Virus record (IMG/VR): IMGVR_UViG_3300009158_003091
Span: 1-33,587 of that record
DNA: 33,587 nt
Direction: 5' to 3' (one strand)
DNA from: a virus
Position numbers and translations under genes: made by a program. Position 1 is the stretch's first letter. Every line of letters starts with the position of its first letter. The notes beneath the pieces are model-generated. The model saw only the letters and a list, made by a program, of their open reading frames with translations, ran no database searches and was not told the DNA's origin. This document shows positions 10,272 through 27,440 of the stretch, in pieces.

Positions 10272-10994
10272 ATGAGTATTCTTAATCGACCCGGTTGGGC
10301 CAATCGCAAACTTATTAATGAAGGACGAGTTTACCAAGATGAACTAAAACGTAGGATCTTGGATCTCTTTGATCGTCCTTCATTGGGTCGTTCACCAAAT
10401 TATGTTGTGGATAATATTTACAACACCCTTCGTTCCCAAAATAATAACGAAGATTTTGATACCAGCAGCATCAATGATGAAGATATTATCAAAATCACTA
10501 TTGATACTGCACAGAATATCAGCCGTGGACAATGCAAGCCACAGTTAAAAATTCAGATTTCTACTGTTTCTGGAGAAGAAGAATCCGAAATGGTGCATGA
10601 TGAAGAAGAGCATGAAGAAGAGCATGAAGATCCAGTTCAAGCTGCCATGATGTTTGGTACGGAACAACCAGTCGAAGCAGAATCTGAACAAGAACCCGAA
10701 GCTCAAGGTTCTGAAGAATACCAAGAAATGGAATCCGAAGAACCAGAGGAAGAAGATGAAGAATCACTTGATATGGAAGGTGAAGAATCCGCAGAACAAG
10801 TTAAAACTTGTAAATGTGCCGAGACTCAATCAATTGGATCTGTAGGTTCTCCAAATGCTCAACCCAAGAGGAAACAAGAACCAGTTAAAGAAGCTGTAAA
10901 ACTTTCTCCCAAAGCAGTAAATCAGTTGCTCCAAGAAAATTATATTAAGTCTAGGCAGCATAAATTTACCATCGAAGAAAAATATCGATTCTAA
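10272..10994 (+). CDS. Late protein with long acidic domain, 240 aa
   Basis: Three regions are visible. Residues 1-95 are a basic-to-neutral folded domain (GWANRKLINEGRVYQDELKRRILDLFDRP). Residues ~100-175 are an extremely Glu/Asp-rich low-complexity stretch with almost no basic residues. Residues ~178-240 contain CKCAE, then a basic helical end (KLSPKAVNQLLQENYIKSRQHKF). This polarity resembles scaffolding, decoration or histone-chaperone-like proteins, but no family is recognised. A late box sits directly on the start codon and a strong terminator follows the stop by ~5 bp, so it is a monocistronic late unit inserted between minus-strand replication genes. Confidence 0.7.
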   Translation: MSILNRPGWANRKLINEGRVYQDELKRRILDLFDRPSLGRSPNYVVDNIYNTLRSQNNNEDFDTSSINDEDIIKITIDTAQNISRGQCKPQLKIQISTVSGEEESEMVHDEEEHEEEHEDPVQAAMMFGTEQPVEAESEQEPEAQGSEEYQEMESEEPEEEDEESLDMEGEESAEQVKTCKCAETQSIGSVGSPNAQPKRKQEPVKEAVKLSPKAVNQLLQENYIKSRQHKFTIEEKYRF

Positions 10995-22336: not shown

Positions 22337-22732
22337 CTACATTTGTTCGAGCTTGATATTCTCGATCATATTTTTCATATCTTCTGTTAATTTGGAAAAG
22401 ATCCAAATTTCATCTTGCAAATATTGTACAAGATGTTCGTTGATTCTAATCTGTTCATCCAAGTCTTGGATTTCTGGAATGGTTTCCAGAGTTTTCTCAA
22501 GACTAGCCTTGGAAAGTTTCACCGGAGAAGAAACTTCTGCTTTTTGAATTAAAGATTTTAAAATTTTAGCTTTCTTCATTTTTAAATCCGAAAGCTCAAG
22601 ACGATGATCATTAAGTCTGGAAACCCAGAAATGCTTTTTGGACGGAACCAACATTGATGCATCTTTTAAATTAAATGCATCAATTTTAAGATCTTCCGAA
22701 ATCTCTTTTTTATATCTTTGATATAGCTCCAT
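22337..22732 (-). CDS. uvsY: UvsY-like recombination mediator
   Basis: A 131-residue helical protein; T4 UvsY is 137 aa. It begins YKKEISEDLKIDAFNLKDASMLVPSKKHFWVSRLNDHRLEL, which follows the UvsY N-terminal pattern (LQEE..KD..ID...L..EA...), then basic KMKKAKILKSLIQKA and C-terminal helices. UvsY loads UvsX on gp32-covered ssDNA. Adjacency to uvsW, as in T4, strongly supports the call. It is the first gene of the uvsY-uvsW unit, 9 nt after a good promoter. Confidence 0.82.
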   Translation of the reverse strand: MELYQRYKKEISEDLKIDAFNLKDASMLVPSKKHFWVSRLNDHRLELSDLKMKKAKILKSLIQKAEVSSPVKLSKASLEKTLETIPEIQDLDEQIRINEHLVQYLQDEIWIFSKLTEDMKNMIENIKLEQM

Positions 22733-22741
22733 TATGGATTA

Positions 22742-22769
22742 ATTTTACCATTAATCATAAATAATTCAA
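22742..22769 (-). promoter_or_regulatory. sigma70-type promoter for uvsY-uvsW
   Basis: On the minus strand, TTGAAT (22769-22764), 16 bp, TAAAAT (22747-22742), 9 nt to the ATG. Its -35 overlaps the plus-strand late box at 22758 and the start codon of the gene at 22769. Confidence 0.65.
22758..22765 (+). promoter_or_regulatory. Late-type promoter box TAAATAAT for the 22769 gene
   Basis: ATAAATAAT with first T of TAAATA 11 nt before the ATG. It is interleaved with the divergent early promoter of uvsY, so the two may exclude each other. Confidence 0.65.
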
Positions 22770-22978
22770 TGGACAGATTTGATGAATTATATGAAAAACT
22801 AATGGAATCCATGACTTCAAATGTTTTTGGAACTCCTGTTGGTGCTCCTCCAATCGGAAGCACTGTGAATCAGATGTATAATTCTGATAGTTATGCTCCA
22901 AATGATATGCGTTTTGTTCGTGCTACTCCTAAAGTTCAGAGAAGGAACATGGCAAAATCTAAAAAGAAGAGTAAGTAA
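22769..22978 (+). CDS. Small late protein with capsid-targeting-like N-terminus, 69 aa
   Basis: The N-terminus MDRFDELYEKLME is an amphipathic helix ending L-M-E, the same pattern as other late proteins here. A Gly/Pro/Asn-rich middle (GTPVGAPPIGSTVNQ) and a strongly basic C-terminus (RRNMAKSKKKSK) follow. If cleaved after Glu13, the product is a 56-residue basic peptide, like T4 internal capsid proteins that bind packaged DNA. Late box directly upstream. Not recognised by sequence. Confidence 0.65.
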   Translation: MDRFDELYEKLMESMTSNVFGTPVGAPPIGSTVNQMYNSDSYAPNDMRFVRATPKVQRRNMAKSKKKSK

Positions 22979-22983
22979 ACCAA

Positions 22984-23394
22984 ATGAAAGATTTGGGTCA
23001 TTGGACTACCGAGTTAGAAATTCCAGAAAATCCTTTTGGAATGATTTATGTTATTACGAATAAAATTAATAACAAAAAATATATTGGAAAGAAGCAAATC
23101 TTATCCAAAAGGAAAAAACCACCATTAAAAGGCAAAACGCGAAAAAGGATAGTGATCGTTGAAACCGACTGGAAAACTTATACATCCTCATCGAATAATC
23201 TGAATTTGGACATTAAAGAACATAAAATTGAAAATTTTTCGTTTCAAATTATCCGTTTCTGCGAAAGTAAGAGTGAAATGGCATATTTCGAGGCAAAAGA
23301 ACAGTTTGATCGGGAAGTTTTGCTAAAAGATGAATATTACAACGAAATAATAAATCTCAGGCTTCGCAAAATTTCCAATAATTTGAAGAAATAG
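22984..23394 (+). CDS. GIY-YIG nuclease-like protein (SegE type), 136 aa
   Basis: Residues 19-37 (GMIYVITNKINNKKYIGKK) are the GIY and YIG strands in diverged form. Residues ~40-60 are a Lys/Arg-rich insertion. TDWKTYTSSSNNL (residues ~61-73) and FSFQIIRFCESKSEMAYFEAKEQFD with a late Glu (~115) complete a GIY-YIG-like domain. The layout matches the SegE-type family of T4-like phages: small free-standing homing nucleases or conserved relatives. It lies 5 bp after the 69-aa late gene with no promoter or SD of its own. Confidence 0.72.
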   Translation: MKDLGHWTTELEIPENPFGMIYVITNKINNKKYIGKKQILSKRKKPPLKGKTRKRIVIVETDWKTYTSSSNNLNLDIKEHKIENFSFQIIRFCESKSEMAYFEAKEQFDREVLLKDEYYNEIINLRLRKISNNLKK

Positions 23395-24022: not shown

Positions 24023-24469
24023 ATGAAATTTGAAAAATTTATTTACAAAAAATTTTCGGTGATGCTTGAAGCCGATCAAAATCCTGAAATGGGTGGAAAT
24101 TCCGTAGAATCACAAGCACCAGAAGGAGCCCCAAATCCTCCTGAAAATTCCGCCACAACTCAAGATGGGGAACAAGTTCGGGAGCAAATTAAAGCTGCGA
24201 CAGGAAAATTATTGCAGCTCATGAAAGATTTTTCTGGATTCATTCGTAAAGAACGTGATGTTGAGAATATCATCATCAAGCCAAGTGCTCAACATATTTC
24301 GGATTTGTTGGATTTGATGCAAGAAAGCGAATTAAGTGCAGATCCATTGATGGGATTATCCAAAATTGAAGATGCTGTAAAAAAAGCACAAGGTCATTAC
24401 AATCCAGAAACTACTAGTGTAGCCGTAGAAGGTTTCTCTGACTGGAAATCTTATATCAGAACTAAATAA
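24023..24469 (+). CDS. Late protein with capsid-targeting-like N-terminus, 148 aa
   Basis: MKFEKFIYKKFSVMLE at the N-terminus is a basic amphipathic segment ending in Glu before Ala-Asp, resembling the T4 internal-protein leader MKTYQEFIAE. Residues ~17-50 are Pro/Glu/Asn-rich and disordered. Residues ~52-125 are helical (VREQIKAATGKLLQLMKDFSGFI, IIIKPSAQHISDLLDLMQE). No enzyme motif. First gene of a run of four that share N-termini of this kind. Probable internal capsid or core protein by inference. Confidence 0.62.
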   Translation: MKFEKFIYKKFSVMLEADQNPEMGGNSVESQAPEGAPNPPENSATTQDGEQVREQIKAATGKLLQLMKDFSGFIRKERDVENIIIKPSAQHISDLLDLMQESELSADPLMGLSKIEDAVKKAQGHYNPETTSVAVEGFSDWKSYIRTK

Positions 24470-24473: not shown

Positions 24474-24866
24474 ATGCCATACGAATTAAAAAGTGCAGGA
24501 AAAGGAAAATCTAAAGTTTGTAAAAAAGGCGGTAAAAAATGCTTCAGCAAAAAACCGCTTCCAAAAGCAAAAGCAAAAGCTCAAATGAGAGCAATCTACA
24601 GGAGCGAAAATATGCAAAAAGAATCTTTTGATCAACTTGTTAATGGTTATCTATCAAAATTTATTTTTGAAGATGCAATGGCTGCTTCGGTTCCTCCAAG
24701 TGCAACACAACCCGCAAAAATGACTGATCCCGCAGTGGTTCAGATGCAACAAGCGAAAAAGAAGAAACTAGCACAAGATGCAGCTTCCGCAAATAAAGTT
24801 CCAACCGAAGCAGAAGCCGCAGCATTCAAGGCTGGCGCAGAAGCCGCTAAAAAACGTGAAGTTTAA
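24474..24866 (+). CDS. Late protein with two modules and probable internal start, 130 aa
   Basis: Residues 1-46 form a basic Cys-containing module, MPYELKSAGKGKSKVCKKGG then FSKKPLPKAKAKAQMRAIYRSE. It recalls a short MPYEL...AxxQxRAI motif I have seen in large DNA viruses and phages. Residue 47 is a Met preceded by a strong SD. From there the chain starts a second module, MQKESFDQLVNGYLSKFIFE, with the same targeting-like pattern as the neighbouring late proteins, then an Ala/Lys-rich tail. The gene may therefore make a long and a short product from one frame. The next gene starts inside its 3' end (11-bp overlap). Confidence 0.65.
   Translation: MPYELKSAGKGKSKVCKKGGKKCFSKKPLPKAKAKAQMRAIYRSENMQKESFDQLVNGYLSKFIFEDAMAASVPPSATQPAKMTDPAVVQMQQAKKKKLAQDAASANKVPTEAEAAAFKAGAEAAKKREV
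24600..24614 (+). promoter_or_regulatory. Internal ribosome binding site and start codon in the 24474 gene
   Basis: AGGAG at 24600-24604, 7-nt spacer, in-frame ATG at 24612. The spacing is near ideal. It would produce an 84-residue short form beginning MQKESFDQLV. Confidence 0.6.
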
Positions 24867-25269
24867 TGCAATAGTCCAATCCTTGCTTGAGAAAGCATCC
24901 CAGATAATTTTTCTTCCCAAAGAGAAAATTATTATTGGCGGTGTTGGGACATATATTGCAAAAGTAGATAGTGGTAATGATGCTTATTGTGTTTTACATG
25001 GCGAAAATATTGATTTTAATGACCATGAAGTAACATTTAATACTCATGATGGCAAAACCATTAAAAAACCTTTTATAGACACCATTACGATCAATGTGGG
25101 GGCGGGAACAGAAGAGAAGCGACCCATCGTTGAGTTTGACATCAAAATTAAAGGTCAAATTTATAAAAACGTCAAGTTCTCTATTGCAAACCGAAAAGAT
25201 AACGAAGAAAAAGCTTTATTGGGTTTGGAGTTTCTCAAACCATTAAATGCACTAATTCAAGTTAAATAG
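24856..25269 (+). CDS. Retropepsin-like aspartic protease with targeting-like N-terminus, 137 aa
   Basis: The start is taken as the GTG at 24856, giving MKFNAIVQSLLE; a longer frame from 24778 is mostly the out-of-frame shadow of the upstream gene. The protease core has the catalytic D38-S39-G40 in TYIAKVDSGNDAYCVLH, an EEKRPIVEFDIKIKG strand pair and the hydrophobic-hydrophobic-Gly motif ALLGLEFL near the C-terminus. This is the layout of clan AA pepsin-like proteins of the retropepsin/Zn_protease (RimK-associated) family, which act as dimers. The first 12 residues fit the L-x-E late-protein leader. In T4 prohead maturation uses the serine protease gp21; this one may be an additional, packaged or maturation protease. 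Confidence 0.75.
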   Translation: MKFNAIVQSLLEKASQIIFLPKEKIIIGGVGTYIAKVDSGNDAYCVLHGENIDFNDHEVTFNTHDGKTIKKPFIDTITINVGAGTEEKRPIVEFDIKIKGQIYKNVKFSIANRKDNEEKALLGLEFLKPLNALIQVK

Positions 25270-25273: not shown

Positions 25274-26029
25274 ATGAAACAGTTTTCCAAATTAATGGAG
25301 AATACATTACGTTCTTCTAACCTACGAAGGGTTAGATTGAAGGTAGATCCTGCTTTTTGTGAAAACGGAGAAATTTCCAAGTATCAAGGTTACGAAGGAT
25401 ATATTTTAGCCGAAGATGGAATTAGTGCAAAAATATATTTTGAAGCATTTGAAGGCGGAACAATAGCAACCGTTCCATTCAAAAGTTTAGATTTTTTAGG
25501 AGAAGGAATATTTAGCGATATTGCGGGAGCAATAAAACATGCTGTGGTAAGTCCTTTTCAAAAAGATAGTGAATTTCATCCACTCAATAAATATTATAGC
25601 TCCACAGCATATAGAGAAAAACAAAAAGACAAACCTGATTATTCTTCTGATCAAGAAATTACTGGCAGCGAAGTAAATTCTTCTCAATCTCAAGATAAAT
25701 TCTCTTCTCAAGTTTTAGAAAAACTTTCTGAGAAAATTTTAATTTCCAGAACAGTAAACAACAAAACTATTAATTTTGTTGACGGTGGGAAAAATCTAGG
25801 AACTTACGAACTTAATGTAAAAGATACTTTGGGAAACAGAGTAAATTATAAAACTATTTTAATTAATAAAAATAAAAACGAAAAGGTAAATGAAAATGCT
25901 CTTTATCTTTTATCCGAAACTGATTTAAATAAATTGAGATTAGTTGAAATGAATGAAACTTTAATTAAAGATTTTATTCGCCAGCAAGTTATAGCTGAAC
26001 AGAAAAGAACACAAAGAAGTAACCCATGA
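25274..26029 (+). CDS. Late hypothetical protein with targeting-like N-terminus, 251 aa
   Basis: The leader MKQFSKLME fits the L-x-E pattern. Residues ~17-80 look like a KOW/SH3-like beta domain (RVRLKVDPAF, KYQGYEGYILAEDGISAKIYFEAFEGG). A Ser/Gln/Asp-rich linker (~120-145) leads to a C-terminal domain containing ILISRTVNNKTINFVDGGKNLGTYELNV and ending in helices (LIKDFIRQQVIAEQKR). No family recognised. It overlaps the next gene by 4 bp (ATGA). Confidence 0.62.
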   Translation: MKQFSKLMENTLRSSNLRRVRLKVDPAFCENGEISKYQGYEGYILAEDGISAKIYFEAFEGGTIATVPFKSLDFLGEGIFSDIAGAIKHAVVSPFQKDSEFHPLNKYYSSTAYREKQKDKPDYSSDQEITGSEVNSSQSQDKFSSQVLEKLSEKILISRTVNNKTINFVDGGKNLGTYELNVKDTLGNRVNYKTILINKNKNEKVNENALYLLSETDLNKLRLVEMNETLIKDFIRQQVIAEQKRTQRSNP

Positions 26030-26412
26030 GCTTAAAATTTTTTAATCTTATATCCGAAGCTACACCAACTACTTTGGCTGGCGGGGCAGTTGCGCCCAGT
26101 TCTGCTAGTAAAATACGTGCAGCAAGAAGTCAAAATGCCTCTCAACAACCTGTTGCAGCAGCACAAACAACGCAACAAAATCCTCCACAAGCTCGTAAAA
26201 CCCAACAGCCAAATACAGGAACTTCTACAGTTACACAACCACAAAAAGTTGATATCAACAAACGTGTGGATGAAATTTACAATAATATAGAACAAGAAAT
26301 ACAGGATTGTTTTTCTTCTAAAAATAGAAATTCCGTAAAAGATCCAATCTTTTTGGAGAAAGTAAAATGGTTATTTCTTTTGGCTAAAAGTAATACTACC
26401 ATTAAGAGGTAA
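26026..26412 (+). CDS. Late protein with targeting-like N-terminus, 128 aa
   Basis: MSLKFFNLISE-A is the closest match here to the T4 internal-protein leader (MKTYQEFIAE-A), with Glu followed by Ala at the expected cleavage site. Residues ~12-80 are Ala/Gln/Thr/Pro-rich, disordered. Residues ~82-128 are helical (INKRVDEIYNNIEQEIQDCF, DPIFLEKVKWLFLLAK). Coupled to both neighbours by ATGA and TAATG overlaps. Probable internal capsid protein by inference. Confidence 0.62.
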   Translation: MSLKFFNLISEATPTTLAGGAVAPSSASKIRAARSQNASQQPVAAAQTTQQNPPQARKTQQPNTGTSTVTQPQKVDINKRVDEIYNNIEQEIQDCFSSKNRNSVKDPIFLEKVKWLFLLAKSNTTIKR

Positions 26413-26696: not shown

Positions 26697-27440
26697 ATGG
26701 CAAAATCATCTAAACCTGAAAAGGTAACAAAGGAGTCTCCTTATGTCTTTCAAAGAGACAAAATGAGTCAAGAACTAAAAATCAAAGAATTACCTTGGAC
26801 CGACAAGCAAAAAGAAATTATAGATTTAATTTTAGATAAAAAGACAAAAATAGTTTTTTTGAGCGGCCCAGCAGGAACTTCCAAGAGTATTTTATCGACA
26901 TACTGTGCATTACGAATGCTAAACGATAAAAAAATAAGTGATATTGTCTATATTAGATCTGTGATCGAGAGTGCATCTAAATCATTGGGATTCTTGCCCG
27001 GATTAGCCGAAGAAAAAATGGAACCATATGCTGCTCCGCTCATGGATAAAATTGAAGAATTAACATCTTTATCAGTATGCAAAAAATTAACTGCTGAAAA
27101 ACGCATTGATGCTATTCCAATTAACTTTTTACGTGGAGCATCTTTTAATGTTAAATTCATTATCGCTGACGAAATGCAAAATGCAGAATTTTCCGAAATC
27201 ACCACAATTATAACTCGTATTGGTAATTTCAGTAAATTTATATTCTGTGGAGATCCAATGCAAACAGATCTAAGAGAAAAATCCAAATCTGGTTTCAAGC
27301 CAATGTACGACATTTTCAACAATGAAGAATCTCGTGAAAACGGTATTTTCTGTGTAGAATTAGGAAAAGAAGATATCGTTCGTTCTGAGATTCTAAAGTT
27401 CATCGTTGACAAATTAGAAATTTACAAACAAACCAAGTAG
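26697..27440 (+). CDS. phoH: PhoH-like P-loop ATPase
   Basis: A 247-residue ATPase of the PhoH family, common in marine T4-like phages. Walker A is GPAGTSKS (57-64), and Walker B is FIIADEMQNA (154-163). A conserved R-S-V region (IVYIRSVIESASKSLGFLPG) and an arginine-containing C-terminal motif FCGDPMQTDL complete the fold. Bacterial PhoH2 relatives are RNA helicase/RNase fusions; the phage protein has only the ATPase domain, and its role (RNA metabolism, phosphate stress or lipid metabolism) is not settled. The late box implies late expression. Confidence 0.92.
   Translation: MAKSSKPEKVTKESPYVFQRDKMSQELKIKELPWTDKQKEIIDLILDKKTKIVFLSGPAGTSKSILSTYCALRMLNDKKISDIVYIRSVIESASKSLGFLPGLAEEKMEPYAAPLMDKIEELTSLSVCKKLTAEKRIDAIPINFLRGASFNVKFIIADEMQNAEFSEITTIITRIGNFSKFIFCGDPMQTDLREKSKSGFKPMYDIFNNEESRENGIFCVELGKEDIVRSEILKFIVDKLEIYKQTK

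What the first reader, a model, noticed from the sequence alone, without database searches (positions are those of the whole stretch)
24856..25269. Retropepsin-like aspartic protease in a late operon, with a putative capsid-targeting tag
The 137-aa protein has D-S-G (38-40), a strand pair EEKRPIVEFDIKIKG and ALLGLEFL, the layout of clan AA (retropepsin/RimK-associated Zn_protease) proteins. It is preceded by the tag MKFNAIVQSLLE. T4-like phages are known for a serine prohead protease (gp21), not an aspartic one. A packaged retropepsin could mature the head, process injected proteins, or act on the host on entry.
Basis: partly seen in the sequence, partly recalled or inferred. Interest (0 to 1): 0.75.

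Follow-up and report, generated by a model that had tools for sequence, protein, structure and literature searches.

The report
Phage RimB-like protease with head-targeting-like tag
A T4-like phage carries a small HIV-protease-like enzyme of the bacterial RimB family, which trims chains of glutamate off proteins; a short leader resembling T4's packaging tag suggests, without proving it, that the enzyme travels inside the virus particle and acts on the host at entry.

Summary
The gene is real: 137 aa, GTG start at 24856, D38-S39-G40. It is a retropepsin-fold protein of PF05618 (RimB/RloA). Pfam 27.4 bits against a cut-off of 27. An AlphaFold model (pLDDT 91.7) matches Lpg0085, RloA2 and RloA at Z 15-16 and HIV-1 protease at Z 9.7. 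Asp38 and Gly40 are invariant in 50 phage and bacterial sequences. So are K36, R89 and R113, equivalent to RloA K46, R114 and R137, which hold poly-glutamate.

It does not replace the serine prohead protease. Related phages carry both, but no RimK in the sequence held, and no conserved genome-encoded run of six or more Glu was found. The likeliest substrate is therefore a host-made poly-Glu tail, for example on ribosomal protein bS6.

Relatives add an N-terminal helix such as MKSFKEYFLEN, very like T4 internal-head-protein tags (MKTYQEFIAEA, MKTFKEFTS). The window's own tag is a different, gp21-cleavable type (KFNAIVQSLLE), apparently taken from an adjacent gene. Similar tags occur on neighbours and on RelA/SpoT-like and 2H-phosphoesterase-like proteins. 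Another phage's RimK-RimB fusion was found in purified particles.

Fold and family are well supported. Poly-Glu specificity is likely. Packaging is plausible. Target and timing are inferred.

The parts
24856..25269 (+). RimB/RloA-like retropepsin-fold aspartic protease, 137 aa, GTG start
24856..24891 (+). N-terminal tag (M)KFNAIVQSLLE, within predicted helix 2-14; L-L-E|K fits a gp21-type [LI]-x-E cleavage site; absent from bacterial RimB
   Evidence: resembles MNFNQLVNVLLEK of the gene upstream of the protease in L005
24961..24975 (+). K36-V37-D38-S39-G40: catalytic Asp motif; K36 equals RloA K46 (poly-Glu contact)
   Evidence: invariant K36, D38, G40 in 50 sequences; mapping and PMC12239564
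25120..25122 (+). R89, equals RloA R114 (poly-Glu contact; R114A among the strongest losses of activity)
25192..25194 (+). R113, equals RloA R137 (poly-Glu contact; R137A among the strongest losses of activity)
25216..25224 (+). L121-L122-G123, second clan AA hydrophobic-hydrophobic-Gly motif
   Evidence: L121 invariant, G123 at least 90% in 50 sequences
22756..22763 (+). CATAAATA, T4-late-promoter-like octamer just before the first gene of the block (weak evidence)
   Evidence: TATAAATA itself is not enriched in the window
22769..22978 (+). small protein with tag MDRFDELYEKLMES
24023..24469 (+). conserved operon protein with tag MKFEKFIYKKFSVMLE|A (relatives MKFSKLVKKSYKLLEQ)
24474..24866 (+). 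conserved operon protein (ESFDxLINxYLSxYIFED-type motif; relatives start MPLKxGKS) overlapping the protease start
25274..26029 (+). conserved operon protein with tag MKQFSKLMEN
26026..26412 (+). operon protein with tag MSLKFFNLISE|A

Best explanation
The gene encodes a phage-borne RimB-type retropepsin: a small protease that works as a homodimer, one Asp38 per subunit, with basic residues K36, R89 and R113 lining the channel so that it binds and cuts runs of glutamate. The phages encode no RimK ligase and no conserved poly-Glu protein of their own in the sequence held, so the likeliest substrate is a poly-glutamate tail that the host adds to its own proteins, above all ribosomal protein bS6 (RpsF). 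Removing it would undo or block the host's ribosome modification. The N-terminal helical tag, of the kind that targets T4 internal proteins into the prohead and is cut by gp21, would load some copies into the head, so that protease enters with the DNA and acts before phage genes are expressed. Shown here (computation): fold, family, catalytic and poly-Glu-contact residues, coexistence with the gp21-type protease in relatives, tag resemblance. Inferred: dimer, activity, substrate, packaging, timing. My estimates: retropepsin fold with intact active site 0.97; active protease 0.85; poly-Glu specificity 0.6; packaged in the head 0.5; acts on a host poly-Glu protein 0.4.
For: PF05618 above its gathering cut-off, also above it for the L033, L003, Mosig and YerA41 domains. 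Profile hits 2pma and 9g58. AlphaFold pLDDT 91.7; Foldseek E 1e-8 to 1e-7 to 2pma/RloA/RloA2, HIV-1 protease 1e-4; Z 16.0/15.6/14.9, HIV 9.7. K36, D38, G40, R89, R113 invariant in 50 sequences; their RloA equivalents K46, D48, R114, R137 line the modelled poly-Glu channel and mutants lose activity (PMC12239564). RimB cuts runs of about six or more Glu (PMC11957791). gp21-type PF03420 found in G001, G002, G003, G006 beside the RimB-like gene. No RimK in G001-G004. Tags: L035-L038 MKSFKEYFLEN, L033 MKSFRTFFYEN, L005 MISFMDYFLTEA, L006 MILFKEFYS against T4 ipII/ipIII MKTYQEFIAEA and ipI MKTFKEFTS; positions 4 and 7 carry T4 targeting (PMC9026906). Aromatic-4/7 N-termini are in excess in G001, G002 and T4, and the tag occurs on RelA/SpoT-like and 2H/CPD-like proteins. 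A RimK-RimB fusion gene product is among YerA41 particle-associated proteins (PMC7354516; architecture).
Against: The window's own tag does not have the F4/F7 register of T4 tags (it has F3, I6/V7). Some relatives lack a clear [LI]-x-E site (L006, L009, L010). Tag enrichment is statistical and the motif is short; G006 shows none. YerA41 is not closely related, and its particle list contains many replication enzymes and so may include contaminants. There is no direct proof that hosts of these phages polyglutamylate bS6. Active-site neighbours differ from bacterial RimB (DSGND against DTGA).
Confidence: 0.4

Rival explanations
1. RimB-type protease made late in infection that acts in the infected cell, trimming host bS6 poly-Glu tails or free poly-glutamate, and is not packaged. 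The N-terminal helix is just a conserved extension, for example for assembly or partner binding.
For: Same fold and residue evidence. The window's own tag is not in the T4 F4/F7 register, and several relatives lack a gp21 site. The jumbo-phage versions L053/L054 lack a tag. Packaging is unproven.
Against: Within the window's family the extension is near-identical to T4 targeting sequences in some members, differs between members while the body is conserved, and recurs on unrelated neighbours.
Confidence: 0.3
2. Auxiliary head-maturation protease: packaged by its tag, it digests Glu-rich scaffold or core proteins inside the prohead, alongside gp21.
For: Tag resemblance. G001 has an acidic protein with EEEEEEE at 130167-130784.
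Against: The poly-Glu run is not conserved: the part of the G005 homologue that is held has no run of five Glu; no run of five or more Glu in the window, G002 or G006. gp21-type protease present. RimB and RloA need about six to eight consecutive Glu.
Confidence: 0.15
3. The fold has been reused for a non-proteolytic or differently targeted role, for example an activator of a host RimK (RimB stimulates RimK) or a decoy, with cleavage secondary.
For: RimB stimulates RimK poly-glutamate synthesis (abstract of PMC11957791). The active-site neighbourhood is altered (DSGND).
Against: Asp38, Gly40 and the channel residues are strictly conserved over deep divergence.
Confidence: 0.1
4. Chance ORF, or a non-protease beta-barrel.
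For: Single-sequence Pfam score is only just above the cut-off.
Against: 16 syntenic or related phage homologues, conserved motif, pLDDT 91.7 model with Z 15-16 to solved RimB-type proteases.
Confidence: 0.02

Closest known systems
RimB / RloA (PF05618 Zn_protease; Pseudomonas RimB, RloA 9g58, RloA2 9g59; Legionella Lpg0085 2pma)
   Same: Retropepsin fold, D-[ST]-G motif, basic poly-Glu-contact residues equivalent to K46/R114/R137, size
   Different: Phage-encoded; extra N-terminal helical tag; no signal peptide as in RloA; no RimK in the same phage sequence; DSGND in place of DTGA; about 16-32% identity to the bacterial relatives aligned
Phage RimK-RimB fusions (Pelagibacter phage Mosig, Yersinia phage YerA41)
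   Same: PF05618 domain in a phage; Mosig version carries a tag-like N-terminus (FKNYLEEA); YerA41 protein reported in particles
   Different: Fused behind a RimK ligase; the window protein stands alone
T4 internal head proteins IPI, IPII, IPIII (capsid targeting sequence)
   Same: N-terminal tag with aromatic residues 4 and 7 and a gp21-type site in several relatives
   Different: The body is an enzyme; the window tag itself is in a different register
T4 gp21 prohead protease (PF03420, serine)
   Same: Phage protease in a T4-like phage
   Different: Unrelated fold and mechanism; both kinds occur in the same phages
HIV-1 protease (family A2 retropepsin)
   Same: Single-domain retropepsin fold (Z 9.7)
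   Different: Different family, about 20% identity, different substrates

Membership tests
PF05618 / RimB-RloA retropepsin-like proteases | Score above the curated family cut-off | tested here: met
   27.4 vs 27 bits for the window protein; several relatives above, several below the cut-off
PF05618 / RimB-RloA retropepsin-like proteases | Retropepsin fold like 2pma/9g58/9g59 | tested here: met
PF05618 / RimB-RloA retropepsin-like proteases | Catalytic D-[ST]-G | tested here: met
   D38 and G40 invariant in 50 sequences
PF05618 / RimB-RloA retropepsin-like proteases | Poly-Glu-binding basic residues (RloA K46, R114, R137) | tested here: met
   K36, R89, R113 invariant; mapped by profile alignment and PMC12239564
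PF05618 / RimB-RloA retropepsin-like proteases | Association with a RimK ligase | tested here: inconclusive
   No RimK in G001-G004, but records may be incomplete and the host may supply one; the Mosig and YerA41 homologues are fused to RimK
PF05618 / RimB-RloA retropepsin-like proteases | Homodimer, proteolysis of poly-Glu | not testable with these tools
   Needs purified protein
T4-type capsid targeting sequence | N-terminal position, absent from non-phage homologues | tested here: met
   Bacterial RimBs mostly begin directly at the domain; the window-type phage relatives carry an extension
T4-type capsid targeting sequence | Aromatic/hydrophobic residues at 4 and 7 | tested here: inconclusive
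   Met in five of about seven phage clusters (L005, L006, L008, L033, L035); the window itself has F3 and I6/V7
T4-type capsid targeting sequence | gp21-type [LI]-x-E cleavage site after the tag | tested here: inconclusive
   Window LLE|K, L005 LTE|A; L035 FLE|N only loosely; unclear in L006, L009, L010
T4-type capsid targeting sequence | gp21-type protease in the same phage | tested here: met
   G001, G002, G003, G006; the window itself is a fragment in which I did not search for it
T4-type capsid targeting sequence | Protein found inside virions | not testable with these tools
   Only indirect: YerA41 RimK-RimB fusion in particles
T4 gp21 serine prohead protease (PF03420) | Peptidase_S77 sequence and fold | tested here: not met
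   Pfam lists PF05618, two other aspartic-protease families and one weak Tudor match, no PF03420; retropepsin fold

The most novel reading that the evidence does not exclude
A clade of T4-like phages packs a retropepsin into the head with a swappable targeting tag and injects it with the DNA, where it strips poly-glutamate tails from host ribosomal protein bS6 (or another RimK-modified host protein) and so resets host translation at the moment of infection. The same tag system carries other enzymes (RelA/SpoT-like, 2H-phosphoesterase-like) as a family of injected cargo.
Probability: 0.25. Interest if true: 0.85.

Novelty: new variant of a known kind. Interest (0 to 1): 0.6.

Why it matters
If right, phages deliver a retropepsin that edits a post-translational modification of the host ribosome, and the packaging tag gives a simple rule for listing other injected proteins from sequence alone in phages that cannot be cultured. 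It also gives RimB biology a phage angle: ribosome polyglutamylation may matter in phage-host conflict. Even the minimum reading, a stand-alone RimB-like protease beside a normal prohead protease, separates two kinds of phage protease that are easily confused.

Tried and rejected
Single-sequence PDB search: only a weak 9g58 hit; the profile search was needed. First AlphaFold job with 7 close sequences gave pLDDT 40 and was discarded; adding bacterial RimBs fixed it. Replacement of gp21 by this protease: rejected, since gp21-type genes are present in relatives. Genome-encoded poly-Glu substrate: two G001 proteins have runs of at least 6 Glu, but the homologue of the one followed up lacks the run in the part held, and no run of 5 was found in the window, G002, G006 or T4. 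Phage-encoded bS6: none found. TATAAATA late promoters in the window: below the chance expectation. First tree contained a mis-framed YerA41 row; rebuilt, where the nine window-type phage proteins form one group (93/83) but long branches make deeper placement unsure. First genome-contig scan found nothing. Two neighbouring operon proteins have no match in the annotated phage collection. PHROGs: no significant family for the protease. VIA-align rows below the RimB-type and HIV proteases were not interpreted further.

Full report
OBSERVATION. The start is supported by comparison. In relative L005 a separate gene just upstream of the protease begins MNFNQLVNVLLEK; its DNA aligns with the window's start region (VKFNAIVQSLLEK), while L005's protease has another N-terminus, MISFMDYFLTEA. 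The window therefore looks as if the tag of the upstream gene has been joined to the protease body. The surrounding genes are T4-like: a uvsY-like gene lies at 22337-22732 and a PhoH-like gene at 26697-27440; my reading of other T4-type genes on the minus strand (gp43, UvsX, gp32, gp46/47, UvsW) rests on the sequences and general knowledge, not on a search.

FAMILY AND FOLD. Pfam places the protein in PF05618 (Zn_protease; 27.4 bits, cut-off 27), with weaker matches to two other aspartic-protease families. Relatives from viral contigs give 16 phage sequences in which D38 and G40 are invariant. With 39 bacterial relatives the invariant positions in 50 sequences are K36, D38, G40, R89, R113 and L121. 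A profile of nine phage sequences finds 2pma and 9g58/9g59 in the PDB, all of this family. The AlphaFold model built on the 50-sequence alignment has pLDDT 91.7 and pTM 0.81 (a first job with 7 sequences failed). Its best matches are Lpg0085, RloA and RloA2, then HIV-1 protease, with Z 16.0, 14.9, 15.6 and 9.7 in a second aligner. Viral structure predictions include an uncharacterised phage homologue at 42% identity and others named 'ATP-dependant zinc protease' or 'putative protease', so such proteins exist in databases without a studied function. I did not see any paper describing one in the library searched.

SUBSTRATE. RimB removes poly-glutamate tails that RimK adds to bS6 and needs about six consecutive Glu (PMC11957791). 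RloA does the same in vitro; K46, R114 and R137 contact the substrate in the published model, and R114A and R137A have the strongest effects on activity (PMC12239564). By the alignment, with the chain numbering shifted by 20, these correspond to K36, R89 and R113 of the window protein, exactly the residues invariant. I take this as good but indirect evidence for poly-Glu binding. Phage-encoded substrates are unlikely: no run of five Glu in the window, G002 or G006, two proteins in G001, and the one followed up is not conserved in the part of a homologue that is held. No bS6 gene and no RimK in G001-G004 were found, with the caution that these records may be incomplete. A host-made poly-Glu protein is the best remaining candidate. 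The absence of Shine-Dalgarno sites (7-8%, equal to control, against 63% in T4) and an AAATAA element before start codons suggest a Bacteroidota-type host; PMC11957791 reports RimB-RimK hybrids mostly in Flavobacteriales and Rhodobacterales. The host is an inference.

NOT A REPLACEMENT FOR GP21. The serine prohead protease PF03420 is present in G001, G002, G003 and G006 beside the RimB-like gene, and in Mosig, Melnitz-1, YerA41 and T4.

THE TAG. Bacterial RimBs mostly start at the domain; the window-type phage proteins have an added N-terminus, modelled as a helix at 2-14 in the window protein. In relatives it reads MKSFKEYFLEN, MKSFRTFFYEN, MISFSRYFYEN, MISFMDYFLTEA, MILFKEFYS. T4's internal proteins begin MKTYQEFIAEA (IPII, IPIII) and MKTFKEFTS (IPI), read here from the T4 record; in IPIII residues 4 and 7 direct targeting and 8 and 10 processing (PMC9026906). 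N-termini with aromatic residues at 4 and 7 exceed shuffled expectation in T4 (8 vs 2.4, 1/500), G001 (9 vs 3.6, 2/500) and G002 (6 vs 1.2, 0/500) but not G006. A looser motif that includes the [LI]-x-E site is in excess in T4, G001 and the window, where it picks three genes of this operon. Some hits in these lists are likely chance or mis-called genes. In G002 the same tag stands on three adjacent genes, one RelA/SpoT-like and one 2H/CPD-like (both Pfam scores lie below the curated cut-offs), and a G001 tagged protein has a weak ParB_N match. This pattern, one short leader on unrelated bodies, is what a packaging tag would give. The window's own tag is in a different register, so its function as a targeting tag is less certain than for its relatives.

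PARTICLE EVIDENCE. No virion data exist here for the window's phage. Mosig and YerA41 carry RimK-RimB fusions (RimK first), the reverse order of the bacterial RimBK hybrid. YerA41's 'ribosomal protein modification protein' is marked as particle-associated by LC-MS/MS (PMC7354516), and the record calls the fusion a structural protein. I equate the two from their descriptions. That list also holds replication enzymes, so contamination is possible.

VERDICT. Retropepsin fold and RimB-type family: firm. Active poly-Glu protease: likely. Packaged and injected: plausible, near even. Action on host bS6 at entry: a specific and testable guess.

Noticed in passing
L147 421-1950 (G002, IMGVR_UViG_3300027759_000070): Three adjacent genes with near-identical N-terminal tags (MITFKEYYQ, MFTFLEYYQ, MMLFKEFFD); one RelA/SpoT-like, one 2H/CPD-phosphoesterase-like: candidate packaged cargo.
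   Followed up: partly
window, G001, G002 start codons: No Shine-Dalgarno enrichment (7-8%, as control; T4 63%) but an AAATAA element shortly before ATG, in part overlapping the previous stop codon; suggests a Bacteroidota-type host.
   Followed up: partly
L002 7996-9387 and L026 6851-8272: Phage RimK-RimB fusions with RimK first, the reverse of the bacterial RimBK hybrid; Mosig's carries a tag-like N-terminus, and Methylophilales phage Melnitz has RimK alone with (M)TQKFSQFITEE.
   Followed up: partly
window 22984-23394: SegE-type GIY-YIG endonuclease gene inside the + strand block, conserved in relatives.
   Followed up: no
window 10272-10994; G001 114998-115771: Conserved protein with a long Glu/Asp-rich stretch followed by a short Cys-containing end; function unknown.
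   Followed up: no
G001 130167-130784 and 129775-130095 (L047); L137: Acidic protein with a non-conserved EEEEEEE run beside a small basic protein tagged MVSFEEYFYEH (MLSFKEFFLQE in G005).
   Followed up: partly
L036 6896-8122: A transposase-like ORF (IS605/OrfB-like by eye, not searched) sits between operon genes in this relative.
   Followed up: no
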